A stretch of DNA of 13,786 nucleotides from Alteromonadaceae bacterium (GTDB lineage Bacteria; Pseudomonadota; Gammaproteobacteria; Pseudomonadales; Oleiphilaceae): the NCBI GenBank assembly GCA_013393545.1, contig JABXHG010000141.1, forward strand, positions 1 to 13,786. The letters are read 5' to 3'. Made by a program: the position numbers and the translations under genes. Every line of letters starts with the position of its first letter. Positions within the stretch are counted from its first letter, which is position 1. This document shows, in pieces, positions 1,209-11,107 of this stretch. The notes below the pieces were generated by a model that worked only from the letters and a program-made list of their open reading frames with translations, did no database searches and was not told the DNA's origin.

Positions 1209-1595
1209 ATGAGCGTTGAAGAGGACCTGCTGCCCGAATCCATGGCGGAACTGGTGGACATCATCGGCCTGCCAGCCGTGCTCAAGCTGATGGAAGCCCG
1301 TGGCGGTACCGAATTTTGGGTGCCGGAAAGAATCACCCACCAGCACCCCCTGGTGGACGACATTGGTACCGAAGCGGCACAAACCATGAGTGAATACATG
1401 CCCCTGGAACGAATCAAAGTACCGCGCGGCGCAGCCATCCGCCGCGAGATCCGAAACAGGGCCATCCGCCGCGAGCGCTTCGAAGGCGCAAAGCTGGCCG
1501 AGCTGGCCCTGCGTTACGGCATGACAGACCGGCAAGTGCTGAACATCCTGAACAGCGAGCCGGAAGACGATCGGCAGCAGGATATGTTTGGGTGA
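1209..1595 (+). CDS. mor: Mor-family transcription activator
   Basis: This 128-residue protein is almost the length of Mu Mor (129) and matches the Mor/C activator family. In Mu, Mor binds as a dimer just upstream of the middle promoter and recruits RNA polymerase to start the lytic cascade. The N-terminal half is the helical dimerisation part, including AELVDIIGLPAVLKLME (residues 13-29), followed by the family's glycine-strand turn GGTEFWVP (32-39). The C-terminal half is basic (RREIRNRAIRRERF, 78-91) and ends in a helix-turn-helix, AKLAELALRYGMTDRQVLNI (94-113). No separate C-type activator is seen downstream, so this one protein may serve middle and late promoters. A candidate late operator pair is listed at 2189-2213 and 10015-10039. 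Confidence 0.9.
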   Translation: MSVEEDLLPESMAELVDIIGLPAVLKLMEARGGTEFWVPERITHQHPLVDDIGTEAAQTMSEYMPLERIKVPRGAAIRREIRNRAIRRERFEGAKLAELALRYGMTDRQVLNILNSEPEDDRQQDMFG

Positions 1596-1596
1596 A

Positions 1597-1624
1597 TTTA
1601 CATTGTTTTATCGCTATTGTAGCG
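1597..1624 (+). promoter_or_regulatory. AT-rich spacer with weak promoter-like sequence before the cargo gene
   Basis: The 52-base gap after mor is much more AT-rich than its surroundings. It contains TTTACA (1597-1602), a fair match to a -35 box, and TATTGT (1615-1620), a fair -10 box, but the two are only 12 bases apart, so they do not form a normal pair. A small palindrome, CGCTA-TTG-TAGCG, lies at 1612-1624. A clear ribosome binding site, AAGGAGAAGG, starts at 1635 and fits the ATG at 1648. This could be the cargo gene's own promoter or a middle promoter. Confidence is low because no well-spaced box pair is visible. Confidence 0.35.
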
Positions 1625-1647
1625 CGTAGCAACTAAGGAGAAGGATC

Positions 1648-2115
1648 ATGGAAAGTTATCTTATATTCTGGGCATTGTGTGCCGTCGTATGTTTTGCAAT
1701 CGCTCCGATGAAAGGGCGCGACTCGTTTCCGTGGGCGTTGGGCGGGCTTTTATTCGGCCCCTTGGCGATTCTGGCAATTTTGGTCAGCCCCAAAAGTCCA
1801 GAAAAGGAAACCGCTTTAGCTATCGACAAGGGTGAATTGACTCTGTGCCCGTATTGCCGCGAGGCCGTAAAGCCTGACGCCATAAAGTGCAAGCATTGCC
1901 AATCTGCCCTCAAAGGAAATGGCATGGCTGAACTTGATGAGCGGGAAGCGCACAGCCAGCTGCAAGAGGCGATTTACGCGGGTGACGCAGAGCGAATAAA
2001 GGCAATACTGGCGTCTGGCCTGGACCTGTCAAAAAATCCGCTGGCCTTTTCCCATGTTGAATATGCAAACCTACATGGAAGCCAGGAAATCATCGATTTG
2101 GTTGAAAACCACTAA
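1648..2115 (+). CDS. Cargo membrane protein: two TM helices, zinc ribbon, ankyrin-like tail
   Basis: This 155-residue protein looks like a cargo (moron) gene. Residues 1-20 and 28-47 are hydrophobic helices, separated by a short KGRDSF loop. Residues 67-84 form a compact zinc ribbon, CPYC then CKHC, with Cys67, Cys70, Cys81 and Cys84. Residues 105-152 fit about one and a half ankyrin repeats (LQEAIYAGDAERIKAILASG, then a PLAFSHVEYANLHG-like second helix pair). Base composition and codon use (TTA, ATA, TTT) are clearly less GC-biased than in flanking genes, suggesting later acquisition. It sits where Mu encodes C, has a strong ribosome binding site and is followed by a GC hairpin. Superinfection exclusion or an anti-host role would suit such a membrane cargo protein, but nothing in the sequence proves it. 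Confidence 0.8.
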   Translation: MESYLIFWALCAVVCFAIAPMKGRDSFPWALGGLLFGPLAILAILVSPKSPEKETALAIDKGELTLCPYCREAVKPDAIKCKHCQSALKGNGMAELDEREAHSQLQEAIYAGDAERIKAILASGLDLSKNPLAFSHVEYANLHGSQEIIDLVENH

Positions 2116-2118
2116 GGC

Positions 2119-2136
2119 GGGCGGGAACCCCCGCCC
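2119..2136 (+). terminator. Strong GC hairpin after the cargo gene, then a C-rich tract
   Basis: GGGCGGG and CCCGCCC form a perfect 7-bp stem around the loop AACC, three bases after the cargo gene's stop codon. There is no U run, so it is not a classic intrinsic terminator. The next 100 bases (2126-2233) are rich in C and poor in G on the transcribed strand, which is what Rho loading sites look like. Termination of middle transcription here, just before the late promoter, would make sense. The hairpin is seen; its role is inferred. Confidence 0.5.
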
Positions 2137-2188
2137 CCTTGCCACTCCCACCCACCTGCCGTATCGTTTCCCTGCCCACCAATTAACC

Positions 2189-2213
2189 ACTACCCGAACC
2201 CTTACAGGTTCCG
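2189..2213 (+). promoter_or_regulatory. Candidate late-promoter activator site upstream of the endolysin (Plys-like)
   Basis: ACTACCCGAACC (2189-2200) is followed by a GGTTCCG arm. GAACC (2196-2200) and GGTTC (2207-2211) form a dyad with a 6-base spacer, centred at 2203.5. The same element occurs once more in the window, at 10015-10039, also with its first base 55 bp before a start codon. A -10-like TACTCT lies at 2232-2237. The site occupies the place of Mu's Plys, whose activator binds a dyad near -40. I infer that the Mor-type protein binds here. Confidence 0.6.
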
Positions 2214-2225
2214 CCACCCCGGCCC

Positions 2226-2243
2226 GCTCCCTACTCTGGGAGC
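2226..2243 (+). repeat. Perfect inverted repeat touching the endolysin start codon
   Basis: GCTCCC-TACTCT-GGGAGC forms a 6-bp stem with a 6-base loop, ending at the base before the ATG. The -10-like TACTCT is the loop. The GGGAG in the right arm is too close to the ATG (one base) to act as a normal ribosome binding site. A similar 6-6-6 dyad lies before the protease gene at 10049-10066, three bases farther from its ATG. Confidence 0.5.
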
Positions 2244-2735
2244 ATGAAAAAGACACGGCTTTCTCCCAACTTCTATCTGCACGAGTTCACCCGCTCGCAG
2301 GCGGCCGCGCGCCATGGCATTGACATCAGCGTGGCCGAAGGCGACGTTGTGTTCACCAACCTCCAGCAACTGGCCCAGACCGCGCTGCAGCCCCTGCGCG
2401 ATGCCCTGGGACCGGTGTTCATCAGCTCTGGTTACCGCCCCCAGGACCTGAACCGGGCCATCGGTGGGAGTCGCACCAGCGCCCACGTCCATGGCCTGGC
2501 GGCGGACATCTCCGTGGTGGGCTTCAGCCCGCTGGAGGTGGCCCAGTGGTTCGCCCAGAGCGACGTGCCCTTTGAGCAGGTCATCCACGAGTTCGGCCAG
2601 TGGGTGCACGTCAGCATCCCCAAGCCCGGCCAGATACCCGCATGCCAACTGCTGACAGCCGTGCGCACGCCCGGCAAAACCCGTTATGTGCGGGGCATCC
2701 TGCCCGTTGAAGACGCGCTGGCGATGGCGAGCTGA
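2244..2735 (+). CDS. Endolysin, M15-family peptidase
   Basis: This 163-residue protein is a zinc peptidase of the M15 type that would cut peptide cross-links in peptidoglycan during lysis. The N terminus LSPNFYLHEFTRS is the usual opening of the Peptidase_M15_3 family. The core has SSGYRPQDLNRAIGG (61-75), then SAHVHGLAADI (79-89), with His81 and Asp88 as likely zinc ligands, and GQWVHVSI (118-125), with His122 as the third ligand and His115 as a probable catalytic neighbour. There is no signal peptide, so export needs the holin that follows, which overlaps its stop as TGATG. No alternative in-frame start exists upstream and the family motif begins at residue 6, so ATG at 2244 is secure. No well-spaced Shine-Dalgarno sequence precedes it. 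Confidence 0.9.
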   Translation: MKKTRLSPNFYLHEFTRSQAAARHGIDISVAEGDVVFTNLQQLAQTALQPLRDALGPVFISSGYRPQDLNRAIGGSRTSAHVHGLAADISVVGFSPLEVAQWFAQSDVPFEQVIHEFGQWVHVSIPKPGQIPACQLLTAVRTPGKTRYVRGILPVEDALAMAS

Positions 2736-3226
2736 TGGACTGGGACGGCGTCAGAAACATCGTGTCCAAGTCCGCGCCCCTGCTGGGCACGGCGCTAGGC
2801 GGTCCGGCAGGTGGGGCCATTGGTGGTGCTATTGCCGCTGTGTTGGGCGTGGAAAACAGCCCGGATGCCATCGAGGCCGAGCTGCGCAAAGATCCCGCAG
2901 CATTGCTCAAGCTCAAGGGCCTGGAAGCCGATCTGGAGCGCGCCCGCATTGAAACCCGTGGCCAAGTGGTGCAAGCCGAGGCCCAGGGCGAGAGCTGGCT
3001 GCAGCGCAACTGGCGACCGCTGACCATGATCTGGTTCAGCGTGCTTATCGGCGGGTACTGGTTCGGCTACACCCCGCCCAATCTCTCCGAAGCCGCCGTT
3101 CTCTCCCTGTTTGGCCTGATGAAGCTTGGCCTGGGCGGCTACGTCATCGGGCGCAGTGCCGAGAAGATCACCCAGCATGCCACTGGCAGCGGCCTGCTGG
3201 ACAAATTCATCAAACCCAAGGGCTAG
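2735..3226 (+). CDS. Holin-like membrane protein (3TM holin family)
   Basis: This 163-residue protein resembles the '3TM holin' family first described from gene-transfer-agent release. It would form lesions in the inner membrane so the endolysin can reach the cell wall. Residues 15-37 are a glycine- and alanine-rich hydrophobic segment (GTALGGPAGGAIGGAIAAVL). Residues 45-85 form a charged helix. Residues 88-95 hold the family hallmark LQRNWRPL, followed by two hydrophobic segments (about 96-112 and 120-140). The C terminus is basic. The start ATG shares its A with the endolysin stop, indicating translational coupling. Its place right after the endolysin supports the lysis role. Some family members are annotated only as structural or hypothetical, so holin activity is inferred. 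Confidence 0.75.
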   Translation: MDWDGVRNIVSKSAPLLGTALGGPAGGAIGGAIAAVLGVENSPDAIEAELRKDPAALLKLKGLEADLERARIETRGQVVQAEAQGESWLQRNWRPLTMIWFSVLIGGYWFGYTPPNLSEAAVLSLFGLMKLGLGGYVIGRSAEKITQHATGSGLLDKFIKPKG

Positions 3227-3229
3227 GCC

Positions 3230-3454
3230 ATGGATGAAAAGCAGTTTGAGCAGGCGCAGGCCCTGACAGAACGACTGACGCAAGCGGGCATCGAGCAGAG
3301 CACGCACCGCCCCACAGAGACCCCGCTGGTGGTCGGTGGCCAGCGCCTCTGCCTGTATTGCGAGGATCCGCTCCCGGAGGCACGATTGGCCGCCAATCCC
3401 AGGGCGGTGCGCTGCGTTGAATGCCAGACAGACCACGACCGCCGGGAGGGGTAA
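3230..3454 (+). CDS. TraR/DksA-type C4 zinc-finger protein
   Basis: This 74-residue protein matches the short TraR/DksA family found on plasmids and phages. These proteins bind RNA polymerase through its secondary channel and shift promoter choice, partly mimicking DksA with ppGpp. The zinc finger is clear: CLYC (Cys41, Cys44), then LPEARLAANPRAVRCVEC (Cys62, Cys65), with the PEARL signature. The N-terminal helix reads MDEKQFEQAQALTERL. The acidic DxxDxA tip that is functional in TraR is not obvious here, so the mechanism may differ. It lies in the lysis cassette, four bases after the holin stop, and its stop overlaps the next start (TAATG). Confidence 0.85.
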   Translation: MDEKQFEQAQALTERLTQAGIEQSTHRPTETPLVVGGQRLCLYCEDPLPEARLAANPRAVRCVECQTDHDRREG

Positions 3455-3840
3455 TGGACCTCGCACAGTTCGACTACACCGCCGCCAAGCTGGTGCTGGA
3501 CATCGCACAGCTCGGCGGCCTTATAGGCTTGGGGCTCTACCAGCACATCACCAGCAAGTCCAAGGCCAACGCCGGCGCCATCAACACCGTGCGCAATGAC
3601 CTCGAAAAGTCCCAGGGCCAGCTGGAAGAGCGCATCGCCCGGGCCGAACGCCGGCAGGATGTCTTTGAAAGCCGCATGGACAGCGCCCCCACACACCAGG
3701 ACCTCTCCAAGGTGTATGACCGCCTGAACGACGTAGCCGAGGAAATGTCAAGCGTAGGCGGGCACATGCGGGCGCTTTCCCATCAATTATCCATGGTCAA
3801 TCAGTACCTGCTCAACAACAAAGGAGGCCAGGGCCAGTGA
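3454..3840 (+). CDS. DUF2730 protein (Mu gp25 type), membrane-anchored coiled coil
   Basis: I chose the ATG at 3454, which overlaps the previous TAA and has GGGAGGGG directly upstream, over an in-frame ATG at 3421 that lies inside the preceding gene. The product has 128 residues. Residues 12-31 (VLDIAQLGGLIGLGLYQHI) are a single hydrophobic helix. The rest is a long charged helix with heptad-like spacing (RNDLEKSQGQLEERIARAER and onward), so a coiled coil is likely. This matches DUF2730 in Mu-like phages, whose function is not known. The topology resembles that of an inner-membrane spanin, but no outer-membrane partner is visible, so I do not call it one. Confidence 0.75.
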   Translation: MDLAQFDYTAAKLVLDIAQLGGLIGLGLYQHITSKSKANAGAINTVRNDLEKSQGQLEERIARAERRQDVFESRMDSAPTHQDLSKVYDRLNDVAEEMSSVGGHMRALSHQLSMVNQYLLNNKGGQGQ

Positions 3841-4136
3841 GCTATCAAGACTTTCAGACCGAAGGCCGCCGCCTGGGGATTCTGCGAATCCTCGCCCGGC
3901 GCAACATGTACACCGCCAACGAATACAGCCTGAACGACGAACTGGGCGGTAACTATGGTCACCACGTCAGCAAGGATCTGCTGCACAGCGACATTGCCTG
4001 GCTGGAAGAGCAGGGCCTGGTCATCGCCCAGCAGCCCCGCGCCGGGTGGATCATCACCCTCACCAGCCGTGGCAGCGACGTAGCCGAAGGCCGGGCCAAA
4101 ACCCCCGGTGTTGCCGCACCCCTGCCGGGAGCCTGA
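3837..4136 (+). CDS. Mu gp26-type small protein with winged-helix look
   Basis: This 99-residue protein starts with GTG at 3837, overlapping the previous TGA (GTGA), with AAGGAGG at 3821-3827. It resembles the gp26-type phage protein family found between the lysis genes and the small terminase. Residues 10-70 read as helix-helix-turn-helix plus wing (RLGILRILARRNMYTANEYS, then VSKDLLHSDIAWLEEQGLV and a GWIITLTSRG hairpin), a layout typical of ArsR-like winged helices. The last 20 residues are a loose Pro/Ala-rich tail. A DNA-binding role is plausible from the fold only. The gene is four bases from the next one. Confidence 0.7.
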   Translation: MSYQDFQTEGRRLGILRILARRNMYTANEYSLNDELGGNYGHHVSKDLLHSDIAWLEEQGLVIAQQPRAGWIITLTSRGSDVAEGRAKTPGVAAPLPGA

Positions 4137-4139
4137 GCC

Positions 4140-4688
4140 ATGCCACCGCGTTCAAAGGTGTATGACCTGCCTCAGGAGCTGCGCGACGAGCTGAACGAAC
4201 GCCTGGTCTCCAACGGGTTTCAGGATTACGAAGGGCTGACCGACTGGCTGGAGGAGCGTGGTTTCAAGCTCTCCCGCTCGGCCGTACACCGTTACGGCAG
4301 CGCCCTGCAGCAGGAATTCGATGAAGCCATGGGCGCGGTGCGCAAAAGCACCGAGATGGCCAAGGCCTGGGCCGAATCCGACGAAGACACCCAGGGCGCG
4401 CTCATGGGCGCCACCTCCCAGATGGTGCAGCACCAGCTGATGCAGATCACCCTGGCCCTCAGCCGTGCCGAGCATGAGCCGGAGAAAGCCGCCAAGCACA
4501 TGGCCACCGTCAGCCACGCCATGGCGGATCTGGGCCGGATGACCATCAACCAGAAAAAGTGGGCCCGGGAAGTTCGCCAACAAGTGGCCCGGGAGGCCGC
4601 CGATAAAGCGGCAGAAGTCGCCAAGCGCGGCGGTCTGTCCGCCGATGTGGTTAACGACCTGCGCCGTGAATTGCTGGGGATTGCCTGA
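4140..4688 (+). CDS. Small terminase subunit candidate (DUF3486, Mu gp27 type)
   Basis: This 182-residue protein matches DUF3486, the Mu gp27 family that sits directly before the large terminase and is considered the small, DNA-recognising packaging subunit. The N-terminal 55 residues look like a DNA-binding domain: SKVYDLPQELRDELNERLVS, then GLTDWLEERGFKLSRSAVHR, where the last helix has the family's SRSAVHRYG recognition-helix pattern. The remaining residues are long amphipathic helices suited to oligomerisation, ending with a basic, alanine-rich segment. Its stop TGA at 4686-4688 shares a base with the ATG of a 33-codon ORF that bridges to the terminase gene. The family match is confident; the packaging role follows from position and Mu work. 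Confidence 0.85.
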   Translation: MPPRSKVYDLPQELRDELNERLVSNGFQDYEGLTDWLEERGFKLSRSAVHRYGSALQQEFDEAMGAVRKSTEMAKAWAESDEDTQGALMGATSQMVQHQLMQITLALSRAEHEPEKAAKHMATVSHAMADLGRMTINQKKWAREVRQQVAREAADKAAEVAKRGGLSADVVNDLRRELLGIA

Positions 4689-4789
4689 TGGAAGAACTCA
4701 CCATCGCTCAGGCCATTTTTAAAGCTGGCGACTCCTTGAGCTACGCCATCGTCATTGCCGCATTCGTTAGAGGGTTTCTGAACAAGTGA
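4688..4789 (+). CDS. 33-residue hydrophobic micro-ORF between terminase subunits
   Basis: A 33-codon frame exactly fills the gap between the small and large terminase genes. Its ATG overlaps the previous stop as TGATG, and its TGA overlaps the GTG start of the large terminase as GTGA. The peptide starts MEELTIAQAIFKAGDSL and continues with a hydrophobic stretch (SYAIVIAAFV), then RGFLNK. That looks like a short amphipathic or single-pass membrane peptide. Double stop/start overlap matches the pattern of the operon's known genes, which argues it is translated, at least to carry ribosomes to the terminase start. I know of no family for it. Confidence 0.55.
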   Translation: MEELTIAQAIFKAGDSLSYAIVIAAFVRGFLNK

Positions 4790-4810
4790 CTACCAACCCG
4801 CTTTCTAACG
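4765..4810 (+). repeat. 7-bp inverted repeat over the large-terminase start
   Basis: CGTTAGA (4765-4771) and TCTAACG (4804-4810) are complementary across 32 bases that include the GTG start at 4786. In the mRNA this could place the start in a loop. It uses the same core as the repeat in gemA. Confidence 0.4.
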
Positions 4811-6339
4811 CCCCCACCGCCACCGCCGACGCCCCGCCACCGGTGTTGCTGCCATATCAGCAGCAGTGGATCGCCGACGACAGCCAGCTGAAGGTCAGCG
4901 AGAAGAGCCGGCGAACCGGTCTTACCTGGGCGGAAGCCGCCGATAATGTGCTGATCGCTGCCGCCGCCAAGAACGCCGGCGGCCAGAACGTGTACTACAT
5001 CGGCTACAACCAGGACATGGCCATCGAATACGTGGAGGCCTGCGCCCTGTGGGCCCGCGTGTTCAACCACGCGGCCAGCGCCGTGGAAGAGGGCCTGTGG
5101 GAAGACGACAGCGACGACAAACACATCAAAACCTTCACCATCAAATTCCCGGACAGTGGCCACCGAATTGTGGCGCTGTCCAGCCGGCCCGCAAACCTTC
5201 GGGGTAAACAGGGCGTGGTGGTGATCGACGAGGCGGCATTCCATGACAAGCTCGGCGAACTATTGAAGGCTGCACTGGCCCTGCTGATCTGGGGCGGCAA
5301 GGTGCGCGTCATCAGCACCCACAACGGCGACAAAAACCCGTTCAACCTGCTGATCAACGACCTCAGGGCGGGCCGCCGCAAAGGCTCCGTTCAGCGAATC
5401 AGCTTCAAAGAAGCGGTTGACCAGGGCCTCTATGAGCGCGTGTGTATGCGCCTGGGCAAGGAATGGACCAAAGCCGGTCAGGACGCGTGGGTACAAGAGG
5501 TCTACGACTTCTACGGTGATGCAGCCGACGAAGAGCTGGACGTCATCCCCGCCGAAGGCTCCGGCAACTGGCTGCCACGGGCCCTGGTCGAAGACCGCAC
5601 CCGAAAAGACATCCCCGTACTGCGCCTGAAGCTGGAAGACGCCTTCAAACAGTGGCCCGCCGCCATGCGTGAGGCGGAAATCCGGGATTGGTGCGAGCAG
5701 AACCTAAAACCACTGCTGATGAACCTGCCACCCGACCTCTGGCTGGCGTTCGGCGAAGACTTCGCCCGGCGGATGGACTTAACCGTGATTGTGCCCTTGC
5801 TGATAGGCCAGGACCTGGTACGCCGCACCCCCTTTGTGGTGGAGCTGGCCAACGTCCCCTTTGAGCAGCAGCGCCAGATTCTGCACTACATCCTGGACAG
5901 GGTGCCACGCCTGCAAGGCGGCGCCATGGACGCCACCGGCAACGGCGCCTATCTGGCGGAAGTCACCGCCCAGGCCTACGGCGGCCACCGGGTGGAAGAA
6001 ATCATGCTGTCCGAAACCTGGTACCGGGAGAACATGCCACCCCTGAAGGCCGCCTTTGAAGACGGCACCCTGGAAATCCCGGCCGACAGCTTCCTGGTGG
6101 ATGACATGCGAGCCGTGCAGACCATCAACGGCATCGCCAAAGTGCCAAACAACACGCGAAAAGATGGCCGGCACGGTGATTTCGCCATTGCCCTGGCACT
6201 GGCCTGGTACGCCAGCCGCATAGACCCCGCCCCCATCGAATACACCCCCGCCCCCAGCGCGAAGAGCCGCTGGGACGCATCACCAGACAGCTGGGCAGAT
6301 GACGACGACCTGCTCATACAGGAGACTGGCGCATGGTAG
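4786..6339 (+). CDS. Large terminase subunit (Mu gp28 type)
   Basis: This 517-residue protein is the DNA-packaging motor: an N-terminal ATPase and a C-terminal RNase H-like nuclease that cuts DNA at headful. The Walker A-like loop is SRRTGLTW (41-48), a variant lacking the classic GKT as is usual in these terminases. Walker B is VVVIDEAAF (144-152), with Asp148 and Glu149. The coupling motif is ISTHNG (176-181). In the nuclease domain, Asp325 (GEDFARRMD), Asp382 (GAMDATGNG) and Asp465 (RHGDFAIAL) are the expected metal-binding acids. It begins with GTG, overlapping the micro-ORF stop, and ends overlapping the portal start by seven bases. The C-terminal 40 residues are Pro/Asp-rich and probably flexible. 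Confidence 0.93.
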   Translation: MTTNPLSNAPTATADAPPPVLLPYQQQWIADDSQLKVSEKSRRTGLTWAEAADNVLIAAAAKNAGGQNVYYIGYNQDMAIEYVEACALWARVFNHAASAVEEGLWEDDSDDKHIKTFTIKFPDSGHRIVALSSRPANLRGKQGVVVIDEAAFHDKLGELLKAALALLIWGGKVRVISTHNGDKNPFNLLINDLRAGRRKGSVQRISFKEAVDQGLYERVCMRLGKEWTKAGQDAWVQEVYDFYGDAADEELDVIPAEGSGNWLPRALVEDRTRKDIPVLRLKLEDAFKQWPAAMREAEIRDWCEQNLKPLLMNLPPDLWLAFGEDFARRMDLTVIVPLLIGQDLVRRTPFVVELANVPFEQQRQILHYILDRVPRLQGGAMDATGNGAYLAEVTAQAYGGHRVEEIMLSETWYRENMPPLKAAFEDGTLEIPADSFLVDDMRAVQTINGIAKVPNNTRKDGRHGDFAIALALAWYASRIDPAPIEYTPAPSAKSRWDASPDSWADDDDLLIQETGAW

Positions 6340-7892
6340 ATATTCTTGATCACCGTGGGCTGCCCATGCCCCGCGAAACAAAACCGGGCCCGGCCAAAGA
6401 CCCGCAAACCGCAAGTGTGGGCTACCTCTACCGCGAGTTTGCAGAGCACCCCAGCCGTGGGCTGACCCCGGCCAAGCTGTCCCGCATCCTGGAAGATGGC
6501 GAACAGGGCCGCCTGGAAGACCAGGCCCGCCTGGCCGAAGACATGGAAGAGAAAGACGCCCACCTGTTCAGCGAGCTCAGCAAGCGCCGCCGCGCCCTGC
6601 TGGGGCTGAACTGGCACCTGCGCCCACCGGAAGACGCCACCGCCCAGGAAAAAGACTGGACCAACCGCGTGGAACGCATCCTCCGGGCCCTGGACTGGGA
6701 AGAAATGGTGTACGACGCCTCCGCCGCCATCCTCTACGGGTACGCCTGCCTGGAGTACGACTGGGAGCACAGCGAGGGGCAGTGGCGCCTGAATTCAGCC
6801 GATTATCGCCAGCCGGACTGGTTCATGACACCCGCCCACGACCGCGACAACCTGGTGCTGCGCACCCTGGACGGCCGGGGCGAACAGCTGCGGGAATTCG
6901 GCTGGCTGGTACACGTACACAAAGCCAAATCCGGCTACCTCACCCGGGGTGGCCTGGCGCGAATCCTCGCCTGGCCGTACCTGTTCCGCAATTACTCGGC
7001 GCGGGATCTGGCCGAGTTCCTGGAAATCCACGGCCTGCCGCTGCGCCTGGGCAAGTATCCCGCCGGTGCCAGTGATACCGAGAAATCCACCCTGATGAAA
7101 GCCGTGGTCAACATCGGCCACGCGGCGGCCGGCATCATTCCCCAGGGCATGCAGATTGACTTCCAGGAAGCCGCCAAGGGCAGCTCAGACCCCTTCATGG
7201 CCATGATGCGCTGGGCCGAATCCAGCATGAGCAAGGCCATTTTGGGCGGCACCCTCACCAGCCAGACCAGCGAAAGCGGCGGCGGTGCCTACGCCCTGGG
7301 CGAGGTGCATAACGAAGTGCGCCACGACATCCTGGTGAGCGACGCCCGCCAGATCGCCCGCTCCATGACCCGCCACCTGGTGGAACCGCTGGTCCGCCTG
7401 AACACCCCCATGCGCCGCATGCCGGCGTTCGTGTTCGAGACCGAGCAGCCCGAAGACATCAAACTCTACGCCGATGCGCTGCCCAAGCTGGGCCGCGCCC
7501 TCAGGATTCCCGCCCGGTGGGCCTACCAGAAGCTCGGCATCCCCGAGCCGGAAGCCGACGAGGAAGTGCTGGACTTCACCCCCCGCCTGGCAACCACCGG
7601 GCCGGCAACCGCCACGGCTGCGTTGCGCACAGAGCCGGACAACGGCACCGAAGACTTCCCGGACCAAACCGAACTCGACAACGCCCTGGACGCCCTCAGC
7701 GAAGGCGAACTGAACGACGCCATGCTGCCGGTGCTGGAACCGATCATGAGCGCCGCCCAGAACGGCCCCGAAGCCCTGCAGGCCGCACTGGTGAACCTCT
7801 ACCCGGACATGGACACCGGAGAACTGGAAGAGCGCCTGGCGCGTGCCCTGTTCGTGGCGGAACTGTGGGGGCAGATCCATGGCCAGCAGTAA
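6333..7892 (+). CDS. Portal protein (DUF935, Mu gp29 type)
   Basis: This 519-residue protein matches DUF935, the portal family of Mu-like phages. Twelve copies would form the ring at the capsid vertex through which DNA is pumped by the terminase and to which the tail joins. Typical features are LFSELSKRRRALLGLNWHLR (residues 72-91), the YDASAAILYGYACLEYDW stretch, and a central wing/crown region around the FRNYSARDLAEFLEIHGLP motif. The C-terminal 100 residues are acidic and rich in helices. Length is normal for the family. The gene overlaps the terminase by seven bases and the next gene by fourteen, in keeping with tight coupling of packaging genes. Confidence 0.92.
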   Translation: MVDILDHRGLPMPRETKPGPAKDPQTASVGYLYREFAEHPSRGLTPAKLSRILEDGEQGRLEDQARLAEDMEEKDAHLFSELSKRRRALLGLNWHLRPPEDATAQEKDWTNRVERILRALDWEEMVYDASAAILYGYACLEYDWEHSEGQWRLNSADYRQPDWFMTPAHDRDNLVLRTLDGRGEQLREFGWLVHVHKAKSGYLTRGGLARILAWPYLFRNYSARDLAEFLEIHGLPLRLGKYPAGASDTEKSTLMKAVVNIGHAAAGIIPQGMQIDFQEAAKGSSDPFMAMMRWAESSMSKAILGGTLTSQTSESGGGAYALGEVHNEVRHDILVSDARQIARSMTRHLVEPLVRLNTPMRRMPAFVFETEQPEDIKLYADALPKLGRALRIPARWAYQKLGIPEPEADEEVLDFTPRLATTGPATATAALRTEPDNGTEDFPDQTELDNALDALSEGELNDAMLPVLEPIMSAAQNGPEALQAALVNLYPDMDTGELEERLARALFVAELWGQIHGQQ

Positions 7893-9207
7893 GGTCGACC
7901 TGCGGGCCGCCATGGCCCTGGAACCGAAAGATGCGGTGGCCTACTTCCGCGCCAAGGGATACCAGGTTACCGACCAGTGGCACGACATGGTGCCGGGCGC
8001 CCACGCCACCTCGTTCACCGTGGCCAAGGCCATGCGCATGGACATCCTCGAAGACATCCGCGCCGGCGTGGATGAAGCCCTGGCCGAAGGCATCACAGAG
8101 CGGGACTTCATCAAACGCCTGGCACCGAAACTGAAAGCCAAGGGCTGGTGGGGCAAAGACACCTGGAAGACCAGCCAGGGAGAAGACCGGGAAGTCCAGC
8201 TCGGCAGCCCCTGGCGCCTGAAAAACATCTACCGCAACAACCTGCAGAGTAGCTATATGGCGGGCCGGTACCGTCGGCAGCTGGCGCTGGTGGACGAACG
8301 GCCGTACTGGCAGTACGTGGCCGTGATGGACTCTCGTACCCGCCCCAGCCACCGCGCCATGAATGGCCGTGTGTTCCGCTGGGACGACCCCATCTGGCAG
8401 TACCTTTACCCGCCCAACGGCTGGAACTGCCGTTGCCGAGTCCGCAACCTCACCGAACGCCAGCTGAAGCGCGAAAAGCTAACGGTTGAAAACGGTGCCG
8501 ACTACATCGAGCTGGTCCAGCGCGAGGCCGGTACCAACGTCACTACCGGCGAGGTCGTCACCATGAACCACGCCGTGGTCAACCTGCCGGGCGGCCAGAC
8601 CATGAGCCCGGATGTGGGCTGGGCCAGCAACCCCGGCGCGGCCAGCTTCGGGGTGGACCAGGGCATCGCCCGGAAGCTGGGCCAGGTGCGCAGCACCGAG
8701 CTGCGCAGCCAGGTCATCCAGAGCCTGAACAACTCCGGGCTTCGGCATGAACAGTTTGCCCAGTGGGCCGAGCGGGTATTAACCAGCCGGCGGGCGGGCC
8801 ACGGCCTGGTATCGGTGGGCTTTCTAACAGAGCACCTGAGCAGGGCCGTATTCGAACGCATCGGCAAACAGCCTGGCCGCTTGCTGGTCATTGGCGAAAA
8901 GCAGCTGCTGCACGCCGACAGCCCCAAACACCGGGATGCGGGTATCGCACTCCCCCTGGAAATGTACCAGGCGCTGCCCAGGCTAATGGCTGAGCCGCAG
9001 GCCGTGCTGTGGGACAAGGCCAAGCAGAATCTGGTGTATGTGATCTCGGCCGATGCCGACATGGGGTACCGGGTGATCGTTAACACCGCGTGGCGGTTCT
9101 CCAAAAACGAGAAGGTGCCGCTGGATGGCGTCATCAACGCCTACCAGGCAAAGCTGTCTGACCTGCGCAATGAGGGGGCGTACGAGTTACTGCAGGGGAA
9201 ATTGTAG
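7879..9207 (+). CDS. Head morphogenesis protein F with C-terminal PBECR-like nuclease domain
   Basis: I chose ATG at 7879, which has GTGGGGGCAG upstream and leads straight into the family-typical MASSKVDLRAAM; an in-frame ATG at 7843 would lie deeper in the portal gene. The product has 442 residues. Residues about 110-190 are the Mu F/SPP1 gp7 minor-head domain, with SRTRPSHRAMNGRVF (152-166) and PPNGWNCRCRVR (178-189). Residues about 310-440 form a separate domain with LLVIGEKQLLHADSPKHRDA, a block around AVLWDKAKQNLVYVIS, and YRVIVNTAWRF. This resembles the phage Barnase-EndoU-ColicinE5/D-RelE-like (PBECR) nuclease fold known at the ends of such head proteins. Catalytic residues were not verified; His345, Lys350 and His351 are candidates. 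It ends with tandem TAG TAG. Confidence 0.88.
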   Translation: MASSKVDLRAAMALEPKDAVAYFRAKGYQVTDQWHDMVPGAHATSFTVAKAMRMDILEDIRAGVDEALAEGITERDFIKRLAPKLKAKGWWGKDTWKTSQGEDREVQLGSPWRLKNIYRNNLQSSYMAGRYRRQLALVDERPYWQYVAVMDSRTRPSHRAMNGRVFRWDDPIWQYLYPPNGWNCRCRVRNLTERQLKREKLTVENGADYIELVQREAGTNVTTGEVVTMNHAVVNLPGGQTMSPDVGWASNPGAASFGVDQGIARKLGQVRSTELRSQVIQSLNNSGLRHEQFAQWAERVLTSRRAGHGLVSVGFLTEHLSRAVFERIGKQPGRLLVIGEKQLLHADSPKHRDAGIALPLEMYQALPRLMAEPQAVLWDKAKQNLVYVISADADMGYRVIVNTAWRFSKNEKVPLDGVINAYQAKLSDLRNEGAYELLQGKL

Positions 9208-9214
9208 TAGCCGG

Positions 9215-9289
9215 ATGGGTGACGGGAGTCGAACCCGCGACACGCCGCCGTTAAACGGAGACCGCTCTACCACTGAGGCTTACACCCAT
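9215..9289 (-). tRNA. Antisense tRNA-like gene, anticodon UUA (reads UAA), atypical D region
   Basis: Read on the minus strand, 9289-9283 (ATGGGTG) and 9221-9215 (CACCCAT) form a perfect 7-bp acceptor stem, extendable to 10 bp. The T arm at 9238-9222 is textbook: GCGGG, loop TTCGACT, CCCGT. The anticodon arm has loop GTTTAAC (9256-9250), with U33 and anticodon UUA. Its stem TCTCC/GGCGG has one T-C mismatch. The D arm, CTC-AGTGGTA-GAG, keeps the conserved AGTGGTA loop but has only 3 bp and extra bases before it. No CCA follows. A UUA anticodon would read the ochre stop codon. It may be a functional suppressor-like tRNA, a decoy, or a degenerate gene. Confidence 0.65.
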
Positions 9290-9300
9290 CCGAGGCCTTC

Positions 9301-9330
9301 AGTATAGCCAACACCGGAGAAAACCCGCAA
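9301..9330 (-). promoter_or_regulatory. Promoter-like sequence for the tRNA-like gene
   Basis: On the minus strand, TATACT (complement of 9301-9306) is a five-of-six match to the -10 box. TTGCGG (complement of 9325-9330) is a partial -35 box, 18 bases upstream. Transcription would start a few bases before the tRNA-like 5' end, after a GC-rich discriminator. The -35 half is weak. The same bases on the + strand hold the ribosome binding site of the next gene, so the two readings compete for this sequence. Confidence 0.5.
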
Positions 9331-9824
9331 TGACAGAGATCGCCATTGAGTTCAACGACCAGCAGGTGCAACGCGCCCTGGACGAGCTGATCAACCGGGT
9401 GGAAGACCCCAGGCTGGCCATGCGCGCCATTGCCGGCGTCCTGGAAGATGCCAGCGAAGAAGCCTTCCGCTCAGAGTCAGACCCAGCCACCGGCATCGCC
9501 TGGGCGCCCCTGTCACCAGACACCACGCTGGCCCGGCGCCCTGACCGTGAGGGCGGCTCCATTCTCCAGGACAGCGGGTTGCTGGCCGTTTCCATCGTTT
9601 CCGACTACGGCCCGGACTATGCCGAGGTAGGCTCCAACCGGCCCTATGCGCCCACCCACCAGTTCGGGGCCCAGCAGGGCGAGTTCGGTACCACCAGCCG
9701 GGGCGGCCCCATCCCCTGGGGCGATATCCCCGCCCGCCCGTTCCTGGGCATTGGCCCGGAAGACGAGCAGGAAATCCTGGACATCGCCAGCCGGTTCCTG
9801 GCCGGGGCCTTTACCGACGAATAA
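9330..9824 (+). CDS. Virion morphogenesis protein G (Mu gp31 type)
   Basis: This 164-residue protein matches the phage virion morphogenesis family to which Mu G belongs, which acts in joining or completing heads and tails. Motifs seen are ILQDSGLLAVSI (78-89), YAPTHQFGA (106-114) and IPARPFLG (133-140), all hallmarks of the family. The length is normal. The ATG is preceded by GGAG (9315-9318) at a workable distance. Unlike the other genes in this block it is not coupled to the gene before it; the tRNA-like gene sits in the 122-base gap. It is followed by a 245-base non-coding stretch. Confidence 0.9.
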   Translation: MTEIAIEFNDQQVQRALDELINRVEDPRLAMRAIAGVLEDASEEAFRSESDPATGIAWAPLSPDTTLARRPDREGGSILQDSGLLAVSIVSDYGPDYAEVGSNRPYAPTHQFGAQQGEFGTTSRGGPIPWGDIPARPFLGIGPEDEQEILDIASRFLAGAFTDE

Positions 9825-9913
9825 CCCGACCGCCTCAGAGCCCCTGTAATCGATTCTCCGGCCTTGGGCACCCAACCGCACGCCTGAAACGAGTAAACGC
9901 GGCACAGATTAAA

Positions 9914-9932
9914 TCTAACGCGGGTCTAACGC
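9914..9932 (+). repeat. Two direct TCTAACGC copies, 11 bp apart
   Basis: TCTAACGC occurs at 9914-9921 and 9925-9932, so the copies start 11 bases apart and lie on one helix face. The same octamer occurs at 591-598 and 4804-4811 and, inverted, at 562-569. The left copy overlaps the dyad AGATT-A-AATCT. Function is unknown. Confidence 0.5.
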
Positions 9933-9976
9933 CCAACGCTTGAGCCAGCAGAGCCGACCGGGGTATTCTGCGGCTC

Positions 9977-10001
9977 CCGCTTCCTCCCCCATGCGGTTTT
10001 T
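9977..10001 (+). terminator. Weak intrinsic-terminator-like hairpin after gene G
   Basis: CCGC (9977-9980) pairs with GCGG (9993-9996), which is followed directly by TTTTT (9997-10001). The loop is 12 bases, so the stem is weak, but a second inverted repeat (GAGCCG/CGGCTC) lies just upstream. It would close the lysis-to-G transcript before the next late promoter. Confidence 0.4.
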
Positions 10002-10014
10002 CACCCCCTTGATC

Positions 10015-10039
10015 ACTACCCGAACCCGTTCGCGTTCCG
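10015..10039 (+). promoter_or_regulatory. Candidate late-promoter activator site upstream of the protease (PI-like)
   Basis: This is the second copy of the ACTACCCGAACC element (10015-10026). GAACC (10022-10026) and CGTTC (10033-10037) form an imperfect dyad centred at 10029.5, 40.5 bases before the ATG, exactly as at the endolysin copy. The rest of the region differs from the first copy except for a shared CTGG near -8 and the ATGAAAA start. A weak -10-like CAAACT lies at 10058-10063, also at the equivalent place. Mu has its late promoter PI upstream of gene I, matching this position. Confidence 0.6.
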
Positions 10040-10048
10040 GGGTGTGGC

Positions 10049-10066
10049 GCCAGTGCCCAAACTGGC
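10049..10066 (+). repeat. Inverted repeat before the protease start codon
   Basis: GCCAGT-GCCCAA-ACTGGC is a perfect 6-bp stem with a 6-base loop, three bases upstream of the ATG. It parallels the 6-6-6 dyad before the endolysin, although the sequence is unrelated and the position is shifted by three bases. It overlaps the region where a -10 box would lie. Confidence 0.45.
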
Positions 10067-10069
10067 CCC

Positions 10070-11107
10070 ATGAAAACACAACCGCACATCCAGATTGCCG
10101 CACTCACCGCCAGGCTCCGAAAGCCGGGCAACGAGATCCAGCTGTTTCCAGCTGGTCTGTTCCGTGCCCGGGATGGCCGCCCCGAAGGCCTCGAAGGCTG
10201 GCAGGTCACCGAAGCGGCGGCGAAGCAGCTGGTAGCCCTGGCCGCCCAGCGCCAGACCCCGTTCGTGATCGACTACGAACACCAGACCCTCTATGCGGAA
10301 ACCTCCGGCAATCCCGCCCCGGCCGCTGCCTGGTTCACCACCCTGGAGTGGCGCGAAGGCGACGGCCTGTACGCCGTGGATGTGCAATGGACCGAACGCG
10401 CGGCCGCGCTGATCGAAGGCGACGAATACCGCTACCTCTCACCCGTTTTCAAGTTCGACCGCAACACCGGCCTGGTAACCGAGCTGCTCATGGCGGCCGT
10501 CACCAACAACCCGGCCATTGATGGCATCGCCGATGTGGCGGCTGCCCGCTATCTGCACCAACCACACGAGGAGGCAACACCCGTGGATAAAGAACTGCTG
10601 GAAATGCTCGGGCTGGGCGAAGACGCCACCCCCGAGCAGGTCCGTGCCGCCATCCAGGCACTGAAAGAAAAAGCCGACAAGGCCGAACAGGCCGAAGCCG
10701 ATGCCGCCGCCCTGCGCGCCAAGGTCGACAACCCGGACCCCGCCAGGTTCGGGCCGGTATCAACCATCAAAGGCCTGCAGGACCAGGTGGCCACGCTGAG
10801 CGCAAAGCTGACCAGCGGCGAAGTCGAGGGATTGGTCAAGGACGGCATGGAAGACGGCCGCCTGCTGCCCAGCATGGAGTCCTGGGCCCGGGATCTGGGC
10901 AAGAAGGACGTAGAAGCCCTGCGCAGCTACCTGGACAACGCCCAGCCGATCGCGGCCCTCACAGGCCAGCAAACCGATGGCAAGAAGCCGCCCGAAGGTG
11001 ACAACCAGCTCACCGAGGAAGAGCTGGCTGTCTGCCGCCAAATGAATCAGACGCCTGAGGAGTTTCTCAAGGCCAAGGGCGTCAAGGTTGAGGAGAACAA
11101 CGCATGA
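10070..11107 (+). CDS. Head maturation protease with fused scaffold (Mu gpI type)
   Basis: This 345-residue protein matches the Mu-like prohead protease family, which trims scaffold and head proteins during capsid maturation. The protease part covers about residues 1-160, with VIDYEHQT (66-73; His71 is a likely catalytic residue), EYRYLSPVF (119-127; Ser124 is a likely nucleophile) and AAVTNNPAI (142-150). Residues 172-345 are helical and charged, with coiled-coil character (ALKEKADKAEQAEADAAALR), and represent the scaffold. A strong internal start at codon 172 would give the scaffold alone, as in Mu I/Z. The ATG at 10070 has no Shine-Dalgarno-like sequence. The stop overlaps the major head gene start as ATGA, with GAGGAG before it. 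Confidence 0.9.
   Translation: MKTQPHIQIAALTARLRKPGNEIQLFPAGLFRARDGRPEGLEGWQVTEAAAKQLVALAAQRQTPFVIDYEHQTLYAETSGNPAPAAAWFTTLEWREGDGLYAVDVQWTERAAALIEGDEYRYLSPVFKFDRNTGLVTELLMAAVTNNPAIDGIADVAAARYLHQPHEEATPVDKELLEMLGLGEDATPEQVRAAIQALKEKADKAEQAEADAAALRAKVDNPDPARFGPVSTIKGLQDQVATLSAKLTSGEVEGLVKDGMEDGRLLPSMESWARDLGKKDVEALRSYLDNAQPIAALTGQQTDGKKPPEGDNQLTEEELAVCRQMNQTPEEFLKAKGVKVEENNA
10568..10574 (+). promoter_or_regulatory. Internal ribosome binding site for the nested scaffold
   Basis: GAGGAGG lies inside the protease gene, eight bases before an in-frame GTG at 10583. It is a stronger site than the protease gene itself has. The codons HEEATP make up this stretch of the long protein, so it lies in the linker between protease and scaffold. 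Confidence 0.75.
10583..11107 (+). CDS. Nested in-frame scaffold protein (Mu gpZ type)
   Basis: A GTG at codon 172 of the protease gene, preceded by GAGGAGG with 8-base spacing, would start a 174-residue protein sharing the C-terminal half of the long product. It begins with M(V)DKELLEMLGLGEDATPEQV, is rich in Ala, Glu and Lys, and has a helical core around KADKAEQAEADAAALRAKV, as expected of a scaffold that directs head assembly and is later degraded. Mu makes its scaffold Z from the 3' part of gene I in the same way. This gene probably supplies most of the scaffold, with the longer fusion carrying protease into the prohead. Confidence 0.75.
   Translation: MDKELLEMLGLGEDATPEQVRAAIQALKEKADKAEQAEADAAALRAKVDNPDPARFGPVSTIKGLQDQVATLSAKLTSGEVEGLVKDGMEDGRLLPSMESWARDLGKKDVEALRSYLDNAQPIAALTGQQTDGKKPPEGDNQLTEEELAVCRQMNQTPEEFLKAKGVKVEENNA

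What the first reader, a model, noticed from the sequence alone, without database searches (positions are those of the whole stretch)
2189..10039. Matched late-promoter elements 55 bp before endolysin and protease genes
ACTACCCGAACC occurs twice, at 2189 and 10015, and nowhere else in the window. Each is followed by a GTTCCG arm that makes a GAACC-N6-(G/C)GTTC dyad. Each copy starts exactly 55 bp before an ATG, and both dyads are centred 40.5 bp before it. The genes behind them correspond to those behind Mu's Plys and PI. Since no C gene is seen, the Mor-type protein may bind these sites and drive both late operons, giving a one-activator late switch unlike Mu's two-step Mor-then-C cascade.
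Basis: partly seen in the sequence, partly recalled or inferred. Interest (0 to 1): 0.75.

Follow-up and report, generated by a model that had tools for sequence, protein, structure and literature searches.

The report
Leaderless late promoters in Mu-like phages
Two matching switches in a Mu-like phage appear to start messenger RNA right at the first codon of the lysis gene and of the capsid-protease gene, and a hairpin around each promoter could keep stray transcripts silent, so that one activator would decide when the cell bursts.

Summary
ACTACCCGAACC occurs only at 2189 and 10015, each 55 bp before the ATG of an M15 endolysin and a Mu-like protease, and is conserved there in close relatives. 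The late-promoter reading is supported. A single activator is likely: one Mor/C gene in 9 of 10 related records, none in the tenth, a fragment.

Two things were missed. (1) Across related phages the site is a 5-N6-5 dyad centred at -43.5/-44.5 from the A of the ATG, the geometry of Mu Mor at Pm relative to +1. A -10 lies near -12 to -7, and C precedes the ATG in 45 of 46 non-redundant promoters, with little Shine-Dalgarno signal. Transcription should start at the ATG: leaderless late mRNA, unlike Mu's lys and I. (2) A GC-rich inverted repeat encloses or overlaps the -10 and ends at or near the ATG; its arms covary beyond arm-swapped controls. Read-through RNA would carry a hairpin beside an SD-less AUG, as in T4 gene e; Mu's own I promoter shows a comparable hairpin.

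No start site, binding or translation was measured. New variant of a known kind.

The parts
1209..1595 (+). Mor/C-family activator gene (128 aa), the only Mor/C gene recognised in the window
   Evidence: PF08765 E 1.2e-12, phrog_836 late transcriptional activator E 8.2e-37; session-made profile
2193..2208 (+). Plys activator site, positions -51 to -36, CCCGA-ACCCTT-ACAGG (3 of 5 pairs; right half degenerate)
   Evidence: family-wide 5-N6-5 register; arms
   Evidence: right arm lost in L006 and L016
2226..2243 (+). inverted repeat GCTCCC-TACTCT-GGGAGC whose loop is exactly the putative -10 and whose 3' arm ends at the base before the ATG
   Evidence: forms in the RNA fold, which is -14.2 kcal/mol, z -1.59
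2232..2237 (+). putative -10 of Plys, TACTCT, at -12 to -7 from the A of the ATG
   Evidence: position rule met by 39 of 46 promoters against 26 of 410 control starts
2244..2735 (+). endolysin gene (M15 peptidase); predicted transcription start at 2244 (leaderless)
   Evidence: PF08291 E 7.5e-22, phrog_894; start inferred
2735..3226 (+). holin-like gene, second in the lysis operon
   Evidence: phrog_3427 E 1.6e-19, PF11351 E 1.5e-5
10019..10034 (+). PI activator site, positions -51 to -36, CCCGA-ACCCGT-TCGCG (4 of 5 pairs), centre -43.5
10049..10066 (+). inverted repeat GCCAGT-GCCCAA-ACTGGC; the -10 spans part of its loop and part of its 3' arm
   Evidence: forms in the RNA fold, z -0.47, not significant on its own
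10058..10063 (+). putative -10 of PI, CAAACT, at -12 to -7; the same hexamer lies just upstream of the inferred Mu PI start
10070..11107 (+). Mu I-like head maturation protease; predicted transcription start at 10070 (leaderless)
   Evidence: PF10123 E 3.9e-103; start inferred

Best explanation
The two elements are the lys and I late promoters of a Mu-like phage. A dimer of the phage's single Mor/C-type protein binds a 16-bp dyad centred about 43.5 bp upstream of the start codon and activates host sigma-70 polymerase at a -10 at -12 to -7. Transcription begins at or within a base or two of the A of the ATG, so the late mRNA has no leader. A GC-rich inverted repeat encloses or overlaps the -10 and ends at or near the ATG. 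Transcripts that read in from upstream carry it as a hairpin beside an AUG without Shine-Dalgarno, so endolysin and protease are not made from them; transcripts begun at the late promoter lack it and are translated from their 5'-terminal AUG. Shown here: sequence architecture, its conservation and covariation, and gene content. Inferred: start site, Mor binding, leaderless translation, silence of read-through RNA. My odds: late promoters 0.93, Mor-type binding 0.85, leaderless 0.8, RNA-lock role of the hairpin 0.6 (raised from 0.5 after searches showed a comparable hairpin at Mu PI, which I had first said was absent).
For: Conserved position before both genes. Best 5-N6-5 dyad with 4 or more of 5 pairs at -43.5 or -44.5 in 26 of 46 non-redundant promoters, 0-4 at any other centre; Mu Mor binds 5-bp repeats with a G/C-rich 6-bp spacer centred -43.5 from +1 (PMC4390567 abstract and passages; PMC4287176 figure legend and passages). 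-10 rule 39 of 46 against 26 of 410, C at -1 45 of 46 against 162 of 410, SD core 5 of 46 against 181 of 410. Starts not chosen by hand: 10 of 15 new proteases meet all three rules against 5 of 195 control ORFs, and 19 of 27 first-set proteases with a single possible ATG do. Generic scan of 29 loci: 31 hits on the gene strand, 3 on the other. Stem mean 4.26 against 2.86 +- 0.15 with arms swapped (max 3.30 of 300). Promoter and ATGAAAAA stay the same before two unrelated endolysins. Helix/left-arm agreement 24 of 24. T4 gene e precedent (PMC3014915 passages). In Mu, read-through RNA at I folds to -14.7 kcal/mol (z -3.44, 1 of 200 shuffles as good) and RNA from the inferred start does not (z +1.54).
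Against: No mapped 5' end. Mu itself appears to make leadered lys and I mRNA. 10 of 46 promoters fail at least one of the three rules, and 5 of 15 new ones fail; 3 of the 10 new passes (L303-L305) are close kin of L042 in the first set. 24 of 46 have a stem under 5 bp, and the AT-rich L019 and L020 have short stems and an SD core. Folds of the two window promoters are not significant alone (z -1.59, -0.47), nor is Mu lys (z -0.82). The Mu hairpins were looked for after the idea existed, and 41 perfect 7-bp inverted repeats with loops of 4-12 occur in the 28.2-kb Mu stretch. Stem mismatches (CA 2, CC 1, AG 1, GT 1, TG 1) do not favour RNA over DNA pairing. The window's lys site has only 3 of 5 pairs at -43.5. 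Read on the right arm, the helix rule fails in L176 and L177 and in the three clade lys sites examined (L176). The tree reduces the agreement to about three lineage-level changes. Starts in the first set were partly chosen by hand.
Confidence: 0.65

Rival explanations
1. One reading: the activator reads GAACC-N6-GGTTC centred at -40.5, and the late mRNA is ordinary.
For: Perfect arms at the window's lys site, 4 of 5 at I; GTTCC is kept in the 11 close I promoters and in 6 of 8 relatives' lys promoters.
Against: Only 3 of 46 non-redundant promoters have 4 or more of 5 pairs at -40.5, against 13 + 13 at -43.5/-44.5; the arm is lost in L006 and L016 lys. GTTCC may be a block next to the site.
Confidence: 0.15
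2. The inverted repeat works as DNA: extruded under supercoiling, it presents the -10 as a single-stranded loop to sigma and helps open the GC-rich promoter, which the activator then captures.
For: In the window's lys, and in L022, L029 and L037, a 6-base loop coincides with the -10. Arms covary without conserving sequence. Mismatches do not favour RNA pairing. In Mu, C acts on isomerisation at Plys, PI and PP (PMC4461284, first quarter of the text seen).
Against: In the window's I promoter the loop is offset by 3 bases; loops range from 4 to 9 bases, the limits of the search; at Mu PI the repeat lies downstream of the -10 and its 3' arm reaches the SD-like sequence, as an RNA lock needs; no sigma-70 precedent known to me. 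Lowered from 0.12 for the Mu result.
Confidence: 0.08
3. Transcription starts further upstream and the hairpin is a leader element next to the start codon, perhaps bound by a protein or opened by translation.
For: The hairpin ends at or near the ATG; Mu late mRNAs have leaders of about 20-25 bases as inferred from oligonucleotide design.
Against: The -10, C at -1 and dyad distances agree with a start at the ATG; little SD signal.
Confidence: 0.08
4. Another activator, outside this window or unrelated to Mor/C, reads the dyads; Mor drives something else.
For: The window is a fragment and no genome is held for it.
Against: One Mor/C gene and no second in 9 of 10 related records; dyad geometry is that of Mor; helix residue and left-arm base agree in 24 of 24 rows.
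Confidence: 0.1
5. The inverted repeat is a by-product of GC-rich discriminator and spacer sequence.
For: Arms are mostly G and C.
Against: Arm swapping keeps composition and gives shorter stems (2.86 against 4.26; 5 bp or more in 22 of 46 against 5.3 expected, max 12).
Confidence: 0.05

Closest known systems
Mu middle promoter Pm with Mor
   Same: 5-bp inverted repeats with a G/C-rich 6-bp spacer, centred -43.5, and a -10; Mor-family activator (PMC4390567 and PMC4287176 passages)
   Different: Here the sites stand before lysis and protease genes, i.e. late operons, and +1 appears to coincide with the ATG
Mu late promoters Plys and PI with C
   Same: Same two gene classes; CAAACT near the inferred Mu PI start as in the window's PI; read-through RNA of Mu I has a hairpin that a start at PI would remove (z -3.44), and that of Mu lys pairs CUGCCAUCA with the AUGAUGG region (z -0.82)
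   Different: Mu uses a second activator, C, and leaders of about 20-25 bases with SD-like sequence; in Mu PI the repeat is downstream of the -10 instead of around it
T4 gene e, soc, 49 and I-TevI translational hairpins
   Same: Sequestering hairpins at the start of translation; for gene e, early read-through RNA carries the hairpin and late transcripts begin so that its 5' part is missing (PMC3014915 passages)
   Different: T4 hides an SD and/or AUG and uses its own late sigma; here there is no SD and the AUG would be the 5' end
Leaderless mRNA of lambda cI (recalled)
   Same: 5'-terminal AUG
   Different: Here a late lytic operon switch, repeated across related Mu-like phages

Membership tests
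Mor/C-dependent promoter of Mu type | 5-N6-5 dyad centred near -43.5 from +1 | tested here: met
   Family-wide 26 of 46 at -43.5/-44.5, taking the A of the ATG as +1; window I 4 of 5 pairs, window lys 3 of 5
Mor/C-dependent promoter of Mu type | -10 hexamer at the matching distance | tested here: met
   39 of 46 against 26 of 410
Mor/C-dependent promoter of Mu type | No -35 hexamer | not tested
   Not scored; a lineage-specific block near -36 to -31 was only noted by eye
Mor/C-dependent promoter of Mu type | Mor/C-family gene in the same phage | tested here: met
   window 1209-1595; 9 of 10 related records
Mor/C-dependent promoter of Mu type | Activator binds and is needed for transcription | not testable with these tools
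   Only indirect: helix/arm agreement
Two-step Mor-then-C cascade of Mu | Two Mor/C-family genes | tested here: not met
   One in the window, which is only a fragment; one in each of 9 of 10 related records
Leaderless gene | -10 about 7 bases before the start codon, C or T at -1, no SD | tested here: met
   both window promoters and 36 of 46 in all (C at -1 scored); 10 of 15 new
Leaderless gene | Mapped 5' end at the AUG | not testable with these tools
   No transcript start data at hand
T4 gene e type translational lock | Hairpin present in read-through RNA and absent from late RNA | tested here: inconclusive
   Repeat present and covarying; fold z -1.59 and -0.47; absence from late RNA rests on the inferred start

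The most novel reading that the evidence does not exclude
Most Mu-like phages with a protease related to this one start late mRNA exactly on the AUG of their lysis and capsid-protease operons and enclose the promoter's -10 in a hairpin lock; Mu keeps a lock but has a leader. Only transcripts begun by the Mor-type activator could then be translated, which would make activator binding a licence for both transcription and translation of the lysis gene.
Probability: 0.48. Interest if true: 0.75.

Novelty: new variant of a known kind. Interest (0 to 1): 0.6.

Why it matters
It would give a phage group a compact late switch with one activator and leaderless late mRNA, make Mu's leadered two-step scheme look like a special case, and show independent invention of the T4 lysozyme lock. 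It predicts transcription starts, start-codon corrections (KS10 protease), a lock in Mu itself that can be tested in E. coli K-12, and a base-reading rule for Mor/C proteins.

Tried and rejected
A second protein site in the inverted repeat is not favoured, but the argument is weak: in 14 of 15 same-phage pairs the dyad is more alike than the upstream arm (L012 is the exception; L002, L011 and L071 are close), yet 11 of the 15 second promoters were found by dyad likeness; of the 4 found otherwise (window, L001, L002, L012) 3 agree. A fixed-centre covariation test of the repeat gave no signal (z 0.3 at -9.5), as loop length and register vary; the free-register test did. The GU-versus-AC test was too small to decide (6 mismatches). 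A third site for tail genes: none in 6 records of the close clade apart from one two-mismatch hit in G002, but L046 has one before a DNA_circ_N gene and L043 one upstream of a similar gene. Of the 31 scan hits on the gene strand, L006 782, L013 7706 and L042 8255 are not at lysis or protease genes and look like chance. B3, D3112 and vibriophage martha gave no hit with the signature search and are in no count; some annotated starts there may be wrong. The genome-contig scan found 17 loci, none above 48% identity to the window's Mor. In the helix/arm count I left out phages with Mor but no recognised promoter (L182, L183, L188-L196), L187, whose candidate has no ATG at the right distance, and further members of groups already shown; L177 and L180 were kept though no ATG lies at the usual distance from their sites. 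The arms were entered by me from earlier outputs and later read from sequence for most rows. L045 could not be tested because no Mor was found in its record. The ten paper searches listed nothing on leaderless late promoters in Mu-like phages; that is from listings, and only open-licence papers are held. The Mu hairpins were found after the last paper search, so whether they are in print was not searched.
Full report
OBSERVATION. The two 12-mers, their dyads and distances are as described. Repeats of this length are common in the window (63 repeated 12-mers), but only this one is equidistant from two ORF starts. The genes are an M15 endolysin and the Mu I-like protease; upstream lie GemA and one Mor/C-family gene. 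No whole genome is held for the window. The only annotated phage that matched 1500-4500 by blastn is Alteromonadaceae phage B23 (71.5% over 42%).

CONSERVATION. The protease scan found 88 relatives and kept 80. In 11 loci whose protease is 72-86% identical, some of them near-duplicates, CCCGAAYCC-N6-GTTCC stands at the same distance from the ATG. L034 and L035, similar over a segment, lack it and have an SD. A search of six long records found two perfect copies in four of them and one in the other two. In those two (L006, L016) the lys promoter keeps CCCGAACCC and the TACTCT/GGGAGC/ATGAAAAA part but not the GGTTC arm. In L006, L011, L013 and L016 the gene behind the lys promoter is not the M15 endolysin but a different protein that starts MKNT; the L011 copy is DUF5675. 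The promoter thus travels independently of the gene, with the junction close to the start codon.

ARCHITECTURE ACROSS PHAGES. I lined up 68 promoters on the ATG, 46 of them under 75% alike. Protease starts were chosen partly by hand. Second promoters were mostly found by dyad likeness alone and kept if an ATG lay within one base of the same offset; a few came from tblastn or annotation. The base at -1 is C in 45 of 46, against 162 of 410 control starts. A -10-like pair (A-11 and T-7, or A-12 and T-8) is present in 39 of 46 against 26 of 410; an SD core in 5 of 46 against 181 of 410; all three rules are met by 36 of 46 against 8 of 410. The control starts are first ATGs of ORFs of 150 aa or more, some of them likely spurious. 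To remove my choice: 19 of 27 first-set proteases with a single possible ATG meet all three, and of 15 non-redundant new contigs 10 do, against 5 of 195 control ORFs. Three of those 10 (L303-L305) are close kin of L042 in the first set. Of the five that fail, L306, L338 and L372 still have a stem of 5-8 bp near the ATG; L300 and L364 have 3 at most. A generic scan of 29 loci gave 31 hits on the gene strand, 28 of them at lysis, protease or tail genes, and 3 on the other strand; many of these promoters were in the first set, and L018 and L184 are one phage type.

THE DYAD. Mu Mor binds 5-bp inverted repeats with a G/C-rich 6-bp spacer, centred at -43.5 from the mapped start of Pm (PMC4390567 abstract and passages; PMC4287176 figure legend and passages). 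This agreement is the main argument that +1 is the start codon. In Mu, the oligonucleotides of PMC4461284 (Table 1, said to carry 20 nt downstream of the start) place the lys and I starts about 20-25 bases before the ATG, with SD-like sequence between.

THE INVERTED REPEAT. GCTCCC-TACTCT-GGGAGC-ATG at lys puts the -10 exactly in the loop; at I, in GCCAGT-GCCCAA-ACTGGC, it spans part of loop and 3' arm. Over 46 promoters the longest stem ending near the ATG averages 4.26 bp, against 2.86 +- 0.15 with right arms swapped between phages (max 3.30 of 300) and 2.57 in shuffles; 22 of 46 have at least 5 bp against 5.3 expected (max 12). A fixed-centre test does not see it. Within a phage the dyad is usually more alike than the arm (14 of 15 pairs), but 11 of the pairs were selected by dyad likeness, so this says little. 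RNA folds of the two window promoters form the hairpin (MFE -14.2 and -18.3 kcal/mol for the stretches) but are not exceptional against shuffles (z -1.59, -0.47). Stem mismatches do not tell RNA from DNA.

MU COMPARED. On checking, Mu is not free of such repeats. A stretch read through into Mu I folds to -14.7 kcal/mol (z -3.44, 1 of 200 shuffles as good): CTGCTCA/TGAGCAG lies between the -10 and the ATG, its 3' arm next to the SD-like AGCAGGA. RNA from the inferred PI start has no such fold (-5.8, z +1.54). At Mu lys, read-through RNA pairs CUGCCAUCA with UGAUGGCGG, over the start codon, but not beyond chance (z -0.82); RNA from the inferred start cannot. The Mu stretch has 41 perfect 7-bp repeats with loops of 4-12 (17 in simulation), and I looked after the idea existed, so this is support, not proof. 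It favours an RNA lock over a DNA role, since at Mu PI the -10 is outside the repeat.

WHO BINDS. PF08765 finds one Mor/C gene in 9 of 10 related records and none in the tenth, whose record begins at the endolysin. Of a second set of 19 records 9 match at E up to 0.001, one (G016) with two matches in one frame. Mu has two by the session-made profile. A profile of 12 such proteins reaches the solved structures of Mor (1rr7, 9l0y) and C (9l0x, 9vw8) at E 0.0013-0.0026. In 24 rows with Arg at one place of the C-terminal helix (TDRQVLNIL in the window), an aromatic residue three further on goes with left-arm base 3 = T (14 of 14), Arg with G (4 of 4), Leu/Met/Gln with C (6 of 6). On the right arm of the I or only site, L176 and L177 break the rule, and the three lys sites examined in the window's clade (window, L006, L011) do too. 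Two of the promoters (L186, KS10) were found by a scan that did not use arm sequence. The tree groups the Arg rows (86/80) and the Leu/Met rows (95/92), so the independent changes are about three. That this is the DNA-reading helix is recalled from the Mor fold, not tested. [quoted passage not shown] it gave me no start sites.

MECHANISM. The best reading is a Mor-dependent, leaderless late promoter with a translational lock. In T4 gene e the structure in read-through RNA lowers lysozyme synthesis about 100-fold (PMC3014915 passages). The steps from sequence to start site are well supported; binding is likely; the lock is a hypothesis. Neither part is a new kind, but my ten paper searches listed no description of leaderless late mRNA in Mu-like phages. 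Odds changed in checking: RNA lock 0.5 to 0.6, DNA role 0.12 to 0.08, novel case 0.45 to 0.48, all for the Mu result.

Noticed in passing
L178 (Burkholderia phage KS10, NC_011216) 18120 and 18177: The annotated protease start is TTG 18120; the late-promoter signature (TGTGA-AATGGT-TCACC dyad, -10, C before ATG) points to ATG 18177 as the true start.
   Followed up: partly
L179 (Mu NC_000929) 9527-9550: Perfect inverted repeat CTGCTCA/TGAGCAG between the PI -10 and the I start codon; read-through RNA folds well (z -3.44) and RNA from the inferred start does not.
   Followed up: partly
L176 (Pseudomonas phage LPB1, HE584812) 9997: A late-promoter-like signature precedes an unannotated 115-aa ORF, ahead of the next annotated gene at 10289.
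   Followed up: no
L046 18843, L043 18742: A further copy of the promoter stands before a DNA_circ_N tail gene in L046; in L043 the match is followed 75 bases later by a GTG-start gene that looks alike.
   Followed up: partly
window 3230-3454: A DksA-like zinc-finger gene (phrog_54) lies in the lysis operon, whose promoter has a very GC-rich stretch between -10 and start.
   Followed up: no
window 1648-2115: A gene with a weak zinc-ribbon match sits between Mor and the lysis promoter; the L006 and L016 sequences there look different by eye.
   Followed up: no
promoters, positions about -37 to -31: A lineage-specific block (GTTCC, CTTAAC, CTTATCC, CTAACC) follows the dyad in many phages by eye; it may replace a -35 contact.
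   Followed up: no
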